A stretch of 59,687 nt of DNA from Pseudomonadales bacterium. GTDB taxonomy: Bacteria; Pseudomonadota; Gammaproteobacteria; Pseudomonadales; Azotimanducaceae. Position numbers and translations under genes: made by a program. The DNA is taken from the NCBI GenBank assembly GCA_022827905.1, contig JAJEIQ010000008.1, forward strand, positions 1 to 59,687. Reading direction: 5' to 3'. This document shows, in pieces, positions 7,545 to 10,798 of this stretch. Numbering within the stretch: position 1 is the stretch's first letter; the number at the start of each line of letters is the position of its first letter. The notes under the pieces are model-generated. The model saw only the letters and a program-made list of their open reading frames with translations, did not search any database and was not told where the DNA came from.

Positions 7545-8708
7545 ATGTTGTCGCAAATCCTTGCCGTCACGCTGATGAACGTTCGCAACCTGCCGTCCCG
7601 GCTCGGCAGTTCGTCGGTGATCGTGGTTGGCATCGGCGGCGTGGTGGCGGTCTTGGTGACCTTGCTGGCCATGGCGGGCGGATTTTCAGCGGCGTTGGAG
7701 CGGGGCGGTTCGCCCGATCGGGCGCTGGTGCTGCGCGGCGGATCGGACAGCGAGATGTCCGGGGCGGTGGAGCCGGACGCAGTGCGCATCGTCTCCACCA
7801 TGCCGGAAGTGGCTGACTACAGCCCGGAAATGTACACGGTGGCGGACGTGCCCAAGCGCTCCACGGGCCAGCCCGCCAATCTGATCATCCGCGGCGTCGA
7901 GCAGGCGGCCTTCCGGGTTCGGCCGGAAGTGGAGATCGTCGAGGGTCGCTCGTTCGAGCCGGGCAAGCGCGAAGCCATCGCCGGCTTAGGTGCCTCGGCG
8001 GAGTTCACGGGCATCGACTTGGGCGCCAAGGTGGCGCTTCGGGACAGCGATTGGACCATCGTCGGTCTCTTCAAGGCCAACGGCTCCGCCTATGAATCCG
8101 AATTGTGGGCGGATTTGCCGGTGGCTCAGTCCACCTTCCGCCGGGGCGCCACCGTGCAGTCGGTCCGGGTGCGCTTGACGGCGCCCGAGGTCTTCGACGC
8201 CTTCGCGGCGCGCATCGAGGGGGATCGGCGGCTGGACCTCGAGGCGCACTCGGAGGAGGCCTTCTATCAGCGGCAGTCCGAGTCCTTGAGCACGCTGATC
8301 ACCACGTTCGGCTACACGGTGGCCGTCATCATGGCCTTCGGCGCCTTCTTCGCGGCGTTGAACACCATGTACACCGCAGTCTCCACCCGCACCGTGGAGA
8401 TCGCCACCCTGCGGGCACTCGGCTTCGGCGGCGTGGCGGTGATGGTGTCGGTGTTGATTGAAGCCCTGGGGCTGGCCTTGCTGGGCGGCTTGCTCGGCGG
8501 CGCCATCGCCTACCTTGGCTTCAACGGCTTCACCGTGGCCACCCTCAACCAAGCCTCCTTTTCACAGATCGCCTTCGACTTTGCCGTGACGGGCGAACTG
8601 CTGGCGCTGGGTTTGGTCTGGGCGCTCACGCTCGGCTTCGTCGGCGGCCTGTTCCCGGCCGCCCGCGCGGTCCGCCTGCCGATCACTTCCGCCCTGCGGG
8701 GGGAATAG
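7545..8708 (+). CDS. ABC transporter permease, FtsX/MacB type (second)
   Basis: A second 387-residue permease with the same four-helix layout: N-terminal helix around residues 20-45 (SSVIVVGIGGVVAVLVTLLA), a periplasmic core, then three C-terminal helices from FGYTVAVIMAFGAFFAALN onward and a closing GLFPAARAVRLPITSALRG, the usual FtsX-domain end. It is the last gene of the four-gene efflux set (adaptor, ATPase, permease, permease). No outer-membrane channel gene is adjacent, so a shared TolC-like protein would be needed if the substrate leaves the cell. It converges on the selenoprotein gene with only 2 bases between stop codons. Confidence 0.9.
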   Translation: MLSQILAVTLMNVRNLPSRLGSSSVIVVGIGGVVAVLVTLLAMAGGFSAALERGGSPDRALVLRGGSDSEMSGAVEPDAVRIVSTMPEVADYSPEMYTVADVPKRSTGQPANLIIRGVEQAAFRVRPEVEIVEGRSFEPGKREAIAGLGASAEFTGIDLGAKVALRDSDWTIVGLFKANGSAYESELWADLPVAQSTFRRGATVQSVRVRLTAPEVFDAFAARIEGDRRLDLEAHSEEAFYQRQSESLSTLITTFGYTVAVIMAFGAFFAALNTMYTAVSTRTVEIATLRALGFGGVAVMVSVLIEALGLALLGGLLGGAIAYLGFNGFTVATLNQASFSQIAFDFAVTGELLALGLVWALTLGFVGGLFPAARAVRLPITSALRGE

Positions 8709-8710
8709 CG

Positions 8711-8938
8711 CTAGGCGCCGAGGCCCTTGATGGCCGTCACCAGCTTGTCCTCATCCGGAAACTGGCCGGCGGATTGCTTGGAATGGAGCAGTGCGCCATC
8801 CACCACGACGTCGAACACGCCGCCGCCACCCTCGACAAGACGGGACGAGACGCCGAACTCGGCCTCCAATCGAGCAGCCAAACTGACCGCTTGCGGCTTG
8901 TAGTTTCAGACGCCGCAGTAGGTGATCGAGATGTCCAT
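8711..8938 (-). CDS. SelW-like selenoprotein (SelT/SelW/SelH, Rdx family), Sec11 encoded by UGA
   Basis: A small thioredoxin-fold-like redox protein of 75 residues if the in-frame TGA at complement 8906-8908 is read as selenocysteine. The start reads MDISITYCGV, then U, then NYKPQA, giving a C-x-x-U redox centre (C8, U11) placed after the first beta strand exactly as in the Rdx family (compare the YCGxU.YK pattern of SelW). After the UGA the frame stays open to TAG at 8711-8713 with typical family features (a central VEGGGGVFDVVVDG and a C-terminal FPDEDKLVTAIKGLGA). A GGAGG lies 7 bases before the ATG. A candidate SECIS hairpin follows the UGA. The gene lies 38 bases downstream of a flavodoxin-like gene in the same direction, which may be its electron partner (inference). 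A plain reading frame search would miss this gene or treat it as broken. Confidence 0.88.
8874..8890 (-). promoter_or_regulatory. Candidate bacterial SECIS element (upper stem-loop)
   Basis: In the mRNA, 15 bases after the UGA, GCGGUC (8890-8885) can pair with GGCUGC (8879-8874) through six pairs, two of them G-U, closing a five-base loop AGUUU. The loop begins 21 bases after the UGA and has G as its second base. Bacterial SECIS elements are known for a small upper stem, a G among the first two loop bases and a 16-37 base distance from the UGA; this hairpin meets all three. Folding was done by eye. Confidence 0.6.
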
Positions 8939-8976
8939 GCGGTTGCCTCCTTCGTTAAGTGCTGGGGCCTTGCGGA

Positions 8977-9438
8977 TCAAAACAAGTCCATCTCAAGCCC
9001 CAAGGCCATCGCCAGCCCCAACTCCCGGCAGCCGTTGAGGTGCTCGGCCGTCAATTCGCCCGCAGCGATGATGGGCGCTTGCACCTCCTTGAACGGATAG
9101 CCGTTGGCGATGCGGCGAATGGCGGCCAGCGCCATTGTGCCATCATTGCCGGCGCTGATGAACACGGCGTAGGGCAGGGACAGGATCTTGCCCTCCACCG
9201 GATAGAAGGTGCGGTCGAGAAAGTCCTTCATGCCGCCGGACATGTAGCCGAAGTTTTCCGGGGTGCCGAGCAGCAGCCCGTGCGCCCAAAGCAGGTCATC
9301 CGGTCCTGCGTCCCGGGCACGCAGCAGGCGTGCCTCAACCCCGTCGACGTCCTCGGAGCGAGCGCCGTTCAGGGCCGCTTCCGCCATGCGCCCGGTGTTG
9401 CCGGTTTGGGTGTGGTAAACGATGAGCAGGTGTTTGAC
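8977..9438 (-). CDS. Flavodoxin-like / NAD(P)H-dependent FMN oxidoreductase with unusual start
   Basis: A flavodoxin-fold protein of about 150 residues. The FMN phosphate loop is plain in LLIVYHTQTGNTGRMAEA, and the isoalloxazine-contacting loop is GTPENFGYMSGGMKDFLDR, a pattern of the NADPH-dependent FMN reductase/flavodoxin families. The first ATG in frame (9385-9387) lies after the phosphate loop and would delete it. Upstream the frame is open, but contains no ATG, GTG or TTG; the position where homologs begin (VKHLLIVY) is GTC at 9436-9438, 5 bases after a GAGG, and CTG 9427-9429 is another candidate. The extent given here runs to the GTC; the true start is uncertain. It is 38 bases upstream of the SelW-like gene and likely in one operon, suggesting a joint redox role. 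Confidence 0.75.
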   Translation of the reverse strand, partial: VKHLLIVYHTQTGNTGRMAEAALNGARSEDVDGVEARLLRARDAGPDDLLWAHGLLLGTPENFGYMSGGMKDFLDRTFYPVEGKILSLPYAVFISAGNDGTMALAAIRRIANGYPFKEVQAPIIAAGELTAEHLNGCRELGLAMALGLEMDLF

Positions 9439-9556
9439 TGGAGCCTCGCTGGACGGGATGGCTGGGTCGGCCGGAGTATAGCAACTGCGCCTTCGTGGCG
9501 GCTGCGGCGAAGTCCTTTGCCGAGCGCTAAAATGGCTGGCCGTGTCCAGCAGTTGG

Positions 9557-10798
9557 ATGAATGAAGTCGTGGAACAGCCGGATCAGTTGGTTCAGTTGCC
9601 TGCCGTTCAGGCTGCGGCTGAGCGCATTGCCGGACAGGTTTTGCGCACTCCCTGCGCCCGCTCAGAGACGCTTTCGGCGATGTTGGGCGCGGAGGTCTAC
9701 CTTAAGTTTGAGAACCACCAGTTCACGGCATCCTTCAAGGAGCGCGGCGCCCTGAACTGGCTGCTCGGCCTGCCGGCCGATGCCCGGCAGCGGGGCGTCA
9801 TTGCGGTATCAGCAGGGAACCACGCCCAAGCCGTCGCCTATCACGCGTCCCGCCTCGGCATCCCCGCGGTGATCGTGATGCCCCGGTCCACGCCAAACGC
9901 CAAGGTGGAGCACACCAAGGTGTTCGGCCCGGAAATCCTCCTGGTGGGTGAATCCCTCGATGAGGCCATGGAGCGGACTGGGCAACTGGTGGCGGAGCGC
10001 AACCTGACGCTGGTGCATCCCTTCGATGACGAGCGGGTGATTGCCGGGCAGGGAACGGTGGGCCTCGAACTGCTTGAGCAGGTGGAGGGCCTTGATGCCG
10101 TCCTGGTGCCGGTGGGCGGCGGCGGGCTGATTGGTGGCATGGGCGTTGCGATCAAGGGGCTGGCGCCTTCGGTACGCCTCTATGGGGTACAGATGGAGCG
10201 ATTCAGCGCCGCCCACGACCGTTTTCACGGCCTTGCCGACAACCATTCCCGCCAGCTTGGAACGGTTGCGGAGGGCATTGCCGTCAAGAGCCCCGGCGAA
10301 CGCAGTTGGCCCCTGATTGCCGCCCACGTGGACGGCTTCTTCAAGGTCTCGGAGACTGCCGTCGAGCAAGGCGTCTTCACGCTGCTGGAGGTCGAGAAAA
10401 CAGTGGCCGAAGGCGCCGGAGCCGCCGCCTTGGCGGCCTTGACCGCCAATGCGGCGCGTTTCAAGGGCAAGCGGGTGGCGGTGGTCGTTTCCGGCGGCAA
10501 CATCGACATGATGATTCTCTCCTCCTTACTGCAGCGAGGTTTGGTGCGCGCCAGCCGCTTGGTGCGCTTGGTGATCGAGATTCCCGACCTGCCCGGCGCC
10601 TTGGGAGAACTGACCAGCGCCTTGGGCCGGCTGGACAGCAACATCATTGAAATCGTCCATCAACGGGCGTTCGGAGCCTCGTCGGTGCGCGCCACGGTGG
10701 TGGAGCTGGTGCTGCAGATGCGCGGCGAGGAGCAGAGCGGCCAAGTGCTCGATGCCCTCAAGGCCCAAGGCTATTCGGCGCAGCTCAGAGACCGCTAG
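9557..10798 (+). CDS. ilvA: Threonine ammonia-lyase (PLP-dependent) with ACT-like C-terminus
   Basis: A fold-type II PLP enzyme that deaminates L-threonine to 2-oxobutanoate. The Schiff-base lysine sits in TASFKERGA (about K61), the phosphate-binding glycines in [10 protein letters not shown], and the substrate loop in SAGNHAQ. After the catalytic domain (to about 315) an ACT-like regulatory domain begins at [19 protein letters not shown] and continues to the end, giving 413 residues, the size of the single-ACT class in many proteobacteria (E. coli IlvA has two ACT-like repeats; TdcB has none). ATG 9557 was chosen; GTG 9542 would add five residues. It is divergent from the flavodoxin gene. 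Biosynthetic versus catabolic use cannot be told, so the symbol is provisional. Confidence 0.9.

What the first reader, a model, noticed from the sequence alone, without database searches (positions are those of the whole stretch)
8711..8938. Hidden selenoprotein: SelW-like gene with in-frame UGA (C-x-x-U)
Seen: minus-strand frame with GGAGG ribosome site, MDISITYCGV, TGA, NYKPQA, open to TAG with Rdx-type residues after the TGA. Known: SelT/SelW/SelH-type proteins use C-x-x-U and are found in some proteobacteria. Inference: UGA is decoded as Sec, so the organism should carry selA, selB, selC and selD.
Basis: partly seen in the sequence, partly recalled or inferred. Interest (0 to 1): 0.85.

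Follow-up and report, generated by a model that had tools for sequence, protein, structure and literature searches.

The report
Genuine bacterial SelW-like selenoprotein gene
A small redox-protein gene that looks cut short by a UGA stop codon is very probably read through with selenocysteine, the selenium amino acid, which makes it an ordinary member of a protein family already known from many bacteria.

Summary
Window 8938-8711 (-) is a 75-codon frame with AAGGAGG before its ATG and UGA at codon 11 (C-G-V-U). Read through, it matches Rdx (PF10262, 7.8e-17), and its model matches SelW-related crystal structures (TM 0.90). The genome holds selA, selB, tRNA-Sec and selD. Of 77 relatives that span the site, 76 have TGA and one TGC; the 20 more distant homologs read have CxxC. 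A SECIS hairpin follows: loop GU in 65 of 73 distinct rows against a synonymous null of mean 8.4, maximum 19, and a covariation score of 0.345 that 0 of 500 shuffles reach. All 6 UGA-Rdx genomes in a 194-genome sample of the order have selA. Five other genes of the genome carry TGA at a likely active-site Cys place. Sec insertion was not measured. SelW-like proteins are a known, abundant marine selenoprotein family, so this is a new member of a known kind. Side observations: an upstream flavodoxin-like gene with an apparent GTC start, and bacterial SelW relatives with two UGAs.

The parts
8711..8938 (-). SelW-like (Rdx, SelT/SelW/SelH type) selenoprotein gene, 75 codons plus TAG
8906..8908 (-). 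in-frame UGA, codon 11, read as Sec (C-x-x-U motif with Cys8)
   Evidence: TGA in 76 of 77 relatives that span it, TGC in 1
8873..8891 (-). bacterial SECIS hairpin (8 bp in this sequence; the six pairs that were tested span 8890-8874), loop with G-U at 8883-8882
8946..8952 (-). ribosome binding site AAGGAGG, 7 nt before the ATG
   Evidence: read directly; L023, L024 and L026 carry AAGGAGG and L037 CGGAGG in the same place
8977..9438 (-). flavodoxin-like / FMN_red gene upstream on the same strand; 38 nt between its stop and the SelW-like ATG; apparent start codon GTC at 9438-9436; possible redox partner (inference only)
   Evidence: PF03358 2.4e-7 on 8977-9387; found upstream in 6 of 80 relatives' loci and in 0 of 5 UGA-Rdx loci of the order; start region

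Best explanation
The gene encodes a 75-residue SelW-like, thioredoxin-fold protein whose active site is Cys8-Gly-Val-Sec11. Shown by sequence: SelA, SelB, tRNA-Sec and SelD are encoded in the same genome, and the UGA is followed, 15 to 33 nt on, by a conserved hairpin with G-U in its loop. Inferred from the established bacterial pathway: SelD makes selenophosphate, SelA converts Ser-tRNA-Sec to Sec-tRNA-Sec, and SelB bound to the hairpin brings it to the UGA, so the ribosome inserts Sec and goes on to TAG. Inferred for function: the C-x-x-U pair makes a reversible selenylsulfide and serves as a small thiol/selenol redox protein. The electron donor is unknown; the flavodoxin-like protein encoded just upstream is a candidate.
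For: Read-through protein matches Rdx on both sides of the UGA and TIGR02174 over cut-off. Complete Sec machinery in the genome, with selA, selB and selC within about 4 kb on one contig. TGA in 76 of 77 spanning relatives, TGC in 1; none of the six search peptides covers the UGA and the confirmation query had C there, so the search did not favour TGA. 20 of 20 more distant homologs read have CxxC. Loop GU in 65 of 73 distinct TGA rows against a synonymous-redraw null of mean 8.4, maximum 19 in 2000 draws; all six stem pairs in 45 rows against mean 8.0, maximum 17. On all 73 rows (71 distinct) 89.2% of pair cells are standard against 78.9% shuffled, 42 cells changed on both sides against 13.0, covariation score 0.345 against 0.161, 0 of 500 shuffles reaching any of these. 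All 6 of 6 UGA-Rdx genomes in the 194-genome order sample have selA over cut-off, against 26 of 194 overall. Model pLDDT 88.6; the 22 PDB chains at E 0.001 or better are Rdx/SelW-related. Five further genes in the genome have TGA at a likely active-site Cys place. A Campylobacter jejuni SelW was shown to be translated past its UGA by Ribo-seq and proteomics (PMC11955535, passages read).
Against: No measurement of selenium or of the protein. The single-sequence folding energy of the hairpin is not unusual (z -0.10 on 65 nt; -1.01 on 38 nt). No Rfam family marks it. NF041051 is matched below its cut-off (77.5 against 88). Eight of 73 distinct TGA rows lack the loop GU: L081 and seven Acidimicrobiia/Ilumatobacter-type rows. 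Outer pair 19-35 fails in 21 of 71 distinct rows. Two of the seven sampled genomes of the window's family have selA but no Rdx match. The shuffle control does not correct for relatedness, although sliding the partners by 1 to 3 columns, which does, gives at most 62.4% of cells paired and a score of 0.144.
Confidence: 0.96

Rival explanations
1. Pseudogene: a Cys codon mutated to a TGA stop, and the rest is decaying.
For: None found beyond the stop itself.
Against: The same TGA in 76 of 77 relatives with labels from several phyla; dN well below dS after the TGA in three comparisons; co-varying hairpin.
Confidence: 0.01
2. UGA is read as another amino acid (for example Cys or Trp, by a changed code or suppressor), not Sec.
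For: More distant homologs have Cys at this place, so Cys would fit the fold.
Against: selA, selB, selC and selD in the genome; the hairpin would have no use under a changed code (inference). The flavodoxin-like gene and the Prx-like gene in L146 end in TGA, so TGA still works as a stop.
Confidence: 0.02
3. The hairpin conservation only reflects the protein sequence A-V-S-L-A-A.
For: The protein motif is conserved and GC-rich.
Against: A synonymous redraw that keeps every amino acid and uses each locus's own codon usage gives loop GU in at most 19 of 73 rows against 65 observed. At residue 19, over 74 rows, Ser is AGT 45 times and AGC 4, TCN never; Gly is GGT 19 times and GGC once.
Confidence: 0.02

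Closest known systems
Bacterial SelW-like selenoprotein (CxxU) of the Sargasso Sea and GOS selenoproteomes (PMC1088965, PMC2398784; passages read)
   Same: CxxU motif, SelW-type family, SECIS right after the UGA, Cys forms rarer than Sec forms in those data (48 Sec and 7 Cys; 427 Sec and 56 Cys)
   Different: Nothing essential; the passages seen do not mention a flavodoxin-like neighbour
Campylobacter jejuni SelW (PMC11955535, passages read; NCBIfam NF041051)
   Same: 80-81 aa protein read through one UGA by tRNA-Sec
   Different: Model NF041051 is matched below its cut-off (77.5 of 88 bits)
Bacterial Rdx/SelW-related proteins with solved structures (2fa8, 2ojl, 2obk, 2p0g)
   Same: Fold, TM 0.88-0.91 normalised by the query
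   Different: 25-32% identity in the structural match; their residue at the Sec place was not looked up here
Mouse SelW (2npb)
   Same: SelW fold, 36% identity in the structural match
   Different: Eukaryotic SECIS lies in the 3' UTR (recalled)

Membership tests
Rdx / SelT-SelW-SelH family | profile match over the curated cut-off | tested here: met
   PF10262 61.7 against 22.6 bits; TIGR02174 54.8 against 34.2
Rdx / SelT-SelW-SelH family | C-x-x-U or C-x-x-C motif after the first strand of a thioredoxin-like fold | tested here: met
   C8-G-V-U11 at the end of strand 3-8; SelW-related structures TM 0.90, thioredoxins follow at TM about 0.5-0.6
NF041051 SelTWH_Campy equivalog | score over the equivalog cut-off | tested here: not met
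   77.5 against 88 bits; therefore not filed as that equivalog
Bacterial selenoprotein genes | Sec machinery (selA, selB, selC, selD) in the genome | tested here: met
Bacterial selenoprotein genes | SECIS hairpin just after the UGA with G (here GU) in the apical loop | tested here: met
Bacterial selenoprotein genes | Sec/Cys pairing of homologs at the UGA | tested here: met
   76 TGA and 1 TGC of 77; 20 of 20 CxxC among the more distant homologs read
Bacterial selenoprotein genes | Sec found in the protein | not testable with these tools
   needs 75Se labelling or MS
Flavodoxin-like / FMN_red (upstream neighbour) | profile match over cut-off | tested here: met
   PF03358 30.9 against 24 bits on 8977-9387

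The most novel reading that the evidence does not exclude
In this lineage the flavodoxin-like protein with the GTC start and the SelW-like selenoprotein form a dedicated two-gene redox couple, the flavoprotein reducing the selenylsulfide of SelW in place of glutathione, and the weak start codon keeps the flavoprotein scarce. Support is only adjacency, in the window and in 6 of 80 relatives' loci; the neighbour is absent from the 5 UGA-Rdx loci taken from the order.
Probability: 0.2. Interest if true: 0.45.

Novelty: new member of a known kind. Interest (0 to 1): 0.27.

Why it matters
It corrects a gene that a standard gene finder would miss or cut short, and it places the organism among Sec users with at least six likely selenoprotein genes. 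The family itself is well documented, so the gain is modest. The function of the SelW-like protein was called unclear in one of the papers read (PMC1088965, passage), and the flavodoxin-like neighbour offers one testable partner.

Tried and rejected
Pseudogene and changed-code readings were considered and rejected (see rivals). Rfam gave no SECIS-type match on the window or on three of the five other UGA loci (L145-L147; L148 and L149 were not given). Single-sequence folding did not separate the hairpin from shuffles, so the case rests on the comparative tests. The model built from 44 SelW hairpins found its own site in the genome at 8.5e-12 and nothing else convincing (the next of 7 matches is 0.87; only 150 of 5091 first-look candidates were scored), so it does not serve as a general SECIS finder; further selenoprotein genes were found by family searches instead. 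The formate dehydrogenase and SelD of the genome have no in-frame stop and read Cys at what I recall as the Sec position. A sigma-70 promoter scan and a terminator scan of 8600-9600 found nothing. Inverted repeats in L145 added nothing. Literature searches on sponge symbionts with selenoproteins, on SelW with flavodoxin and on SelW-like in Verrucomicrobia listed nothing on the side observations. The U-x-x-U search did: eukaryotic U-x-x-U SELENOW is in print (PMC7539508, passage). The GUC start-codon search (listing only, 8 of 430 shown) gave nothing of use. The library holds only part of the literature.

Full report
On the minus strand of the window, 8938-8711 reads MDISITYCGV, then TGA, then NYKPQAVSLAARLEAEFGVSSRLVEGGGGVFDVVVDGALLHSKQSAGQFPDEDKLVTAIKGLGA, then TAG, with AAGGAGG 7 nt before the ATG. 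The 387-codon frame on the other strand ends at 8708, so the two genes converge tail to tail.

The protein is Rdx/SelW-like. Reading TGA as a residue, Pfam Rdx matches residues 3-71 at 7.8e-17 and TIGR02174 (SelT/SelW/SelH) over its cut-off; the Campylobacter equivalog NF041051 is matched at 77.5 bits, below its cut-off of 88. In the whole genome this is the only Rdx match at E 0.001, with one TGA inside. Solved relatives by sequence include mouse SelW 2npb (1.7e-7); 8 distinct sequences reach E 1. An AlphaFold2 model from 34 sequences (Cys in place of Sec) has mean pLDDT 88.6 and pTM 0.73. The 22 PDB chains at E 0.001 or better are entries 2fa8, 2ojl, 2obk, 2oka, 3dex, 2p0g and 2npb; some titles say only a gene name, and for those the SelW relation comes's sequence match. 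The best by E-value has TM 0.90; MIEN1 (2ljk) and thioredoxins follow.

The genome can make selenoproteins. selB (409 bits, cut-off 242), tRNA-Sec (75.7 bits, gathering 47, anticodon tca), selA (502 bits, cut-off 268) and selD (266 bits, cut-off 125, in a 729-residue frame) are all there. selA, selB and tRNA-Sec lie within about 4 kb on contig C47. SelD and the best formate dehydrogenase (C16) have no stop inside and show Cys at what I recall as the Sec position.

The site is conserved as TGA. The genome-contig search confirmed 110 relatives and returned the best 80; the other 30 were not seen. Three of the 80 (L085, L089, L094) do not reach the site. Of the 77 that do, 76 have TGA and one (L093, labelled Bathyarchaeota) has TGC. 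Their record titles name Gammaproteobacteria, Acidobacteria, Myxococcales, Verrucomicrobiales, Planctomycetota, Acidimicrobiia and others. In a sample of 194 genomes of the window's order, 65 have an Rdx match: 6 with one TGA in a full-length match, and 59 without (these include G085, whose match is in two pieces, one with a TAA, and G188, below the cut-off). The 20 best uninterrupted matches, the only ones I read, are all C-x-x-C. selA is over its cut-off in 26 of 194 genomes; three more have matches below it. It is in 6 of 6 UGA-Rdx genomes and in 9 of the 59 others (Fisher 3.4e-6 against all 194, 6.1e-5 among Rdx genomes; relatedness not corrected for). Of the 7 sampled genomes of the window's family, 7 have selA and 5 the UGA Rdx.

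A SECIS hairpin follows the UGA. At residue 19, over 74 distinct rows (73 TGA and the one TGC), the codon is AGT 45 times, GGT 19, AGC 4, CGC 2, and CGT, AGG, GAA and GGC once each; Ser is never TCN. I redrew synonymous codons 2000 times with each locus's own codon usage: loop GU is seen in 65 of 73 TGA rows against a mean of 8.4 and a maximum of 19; all six stem pairs in 45 rows against a mean of 8.0 and a maximum of 17. The eight rows without loop GU are L081 and seven Acidimicrobiia/Ilumatobacter-type rows, so that group must use another element or not be decoded.

Covariation was first counted on 44 rows that I picked by hand (29 of the 73 left out, among them all eight without loop GU): 95.5% of cells paired, score 0.361, 0 of 500 shuffles. 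On all 73 rows (71 distinct): 89.2% of cells paired (shuffled 78.9), 42 cells changed on both sides (shuffled 13.0), score 0.345 (shuffled 0.161), 0 of 500 shuffles reaching any of these; sliding the partner by 1 to 3 columns gives 19.0-62.4% paired and scores of 0.025-0.144. Pair 21-33, made of the third positions of Ala17 and Ala21, is C-G 35, G-U 21, G-C 5, U-A 3, U-G 1 and unpaired 6 in 71. The outermost pair 19-35 fails in 21 of 71. RNAalifold on the 44 rows, without being given a structure, predicts five of the six pairs plus 25-29. The loops AGUUU and GGUCU resemble that of E. coli fdhF (recalled). Single-sequence folding energy is not exceptional.

The genome has more likely selenoprotein genes. 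Of 7 CMD matches one holds a TGA (L145, D-C-G-Y-U). Of 12 AhpC-TSA matches two do (L146 W-U-P-F-C, L147 W-U-P-P-C). Both GRDB matches have none inside, but TGA follows just past the end of the match (L148 V-U-P-N-C, L149 V-U-P-V-C), and both match TIGR04483 PrdB below its cut-off. CxxU for AhpD-like and UxxC for PrdB agree with the GOS table (PMC2398784, passage); that the W-U-P places are Prx/Trx active sites is recalled. A hairpin after the TGA is predicted in each, but for the three tested against shuffles it is not beyond chance (z 1.01, -0.05 and -1.62), L145 folds otherwise when a shorter stretch is given, and L148's is short. FDH and SelD were the only other families searched for this purpose, so six genes with the window's own is a lower bound. 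SelW-like, AhpD-like, Prx and proline reductase are among the prominent marine selenoproteins in print (PMC9402790, passage).

How it most likely works is stated under the best explanation. Shown: the gene, the machinery, the conservation and the hairpin. Inferred: Sec insertion and redox use of C-x-x-U. The electron donor is open. A flavodoxin-like gene on the same strand ends 38 nt before the ATG (PF03358). The same neighbour is upstream in 6 of the 80 relatives' loci (L023, L024, L025, L026, L037, L076; some loci are cut by contig ends) and was not found in any of the five UGA-Rdx loci taken from the order sample. In the window, L023, L024, L026 and L037 no ATG, GTG or TTG stands near the place where the protein should begin; GTC stands where L025 has ATG, with GAGG a few bases before it, and in L023 and L024 an in-frame TAA directly precedes the GTC.

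What is known: SelW-like proteins with CxxU were the most abundant selenoprotein family of the Sargasso Sea and of the GOS marine data (PMC1088965, PMC2398784; passages read), have very few or no Cys homologs in Sec users (PMC1794560, passage), and were completely missed by annotation in some Epsilonproteobacteria (PMC4607533, passage). In C. jejuni full-length SelW was seen by Ribo-seq and proteomics (PMC11955535, passages). The finding is therefore a genuine but ordinary new member of a known kind.

Noticed in passing
L047, L053, L055, L058, L059, L063, L065, L072, L079 (Verrucomicrobia-type titles) and L074 (Planctomycetota title), at the match start of each locus: Ten of 77 SelW-like relatives (nine distinct; L053 and L055 are one isolate) have TGA at both motif places (Y-U-G-x-U-N-Y), 9 nt apart, with one hairpin at the usual distance from the second; how the first UGA would be decoded is unexplained. 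U-x-x-U SELENOW is in print for amphioxus and Ostreococcus (PMC7539508, passage); I found no bacterial case in two searches.
   Followed up: partly
window 9438-8977 (-), L023, L024, L026, L037: The flavodoxin-like gene upstream has no ATG/GTG/TTG near its expected start; GTC stands at the place of L025's ATG with GAGG just before it, a possible conserved GTC start codon.
   Followed up: partly
L145 (C47:15785-16027), L146 (C52:62646-63038), L147 (C25:90718-90954), L148 (TGA at C7:35118), L149 (TGA at C1:160789): Five more likely selenoprotein genes of the same genome: CMD/AhpD-like, two Prx-like, two PrdB-like, with TGA at a likely active-site Cys place.
   Followed up: partly
L136 (C64:14544-15452): SelD lies in one 729-residue frame behind a part that looks to me like an NADH-dehydrogenase-type flavoprotein (recalled, not searched), so a likely fusion; it has no in-frame stop.
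   Followed up: no
L091, L092, L096, L097, L098, L101, L102: The Acidimicrobiia/Ilumatobacter-type relatives keep the UGA but lack the loop GU and most stem pairs of the others, so they may use another SECIS.
   Followed up: no
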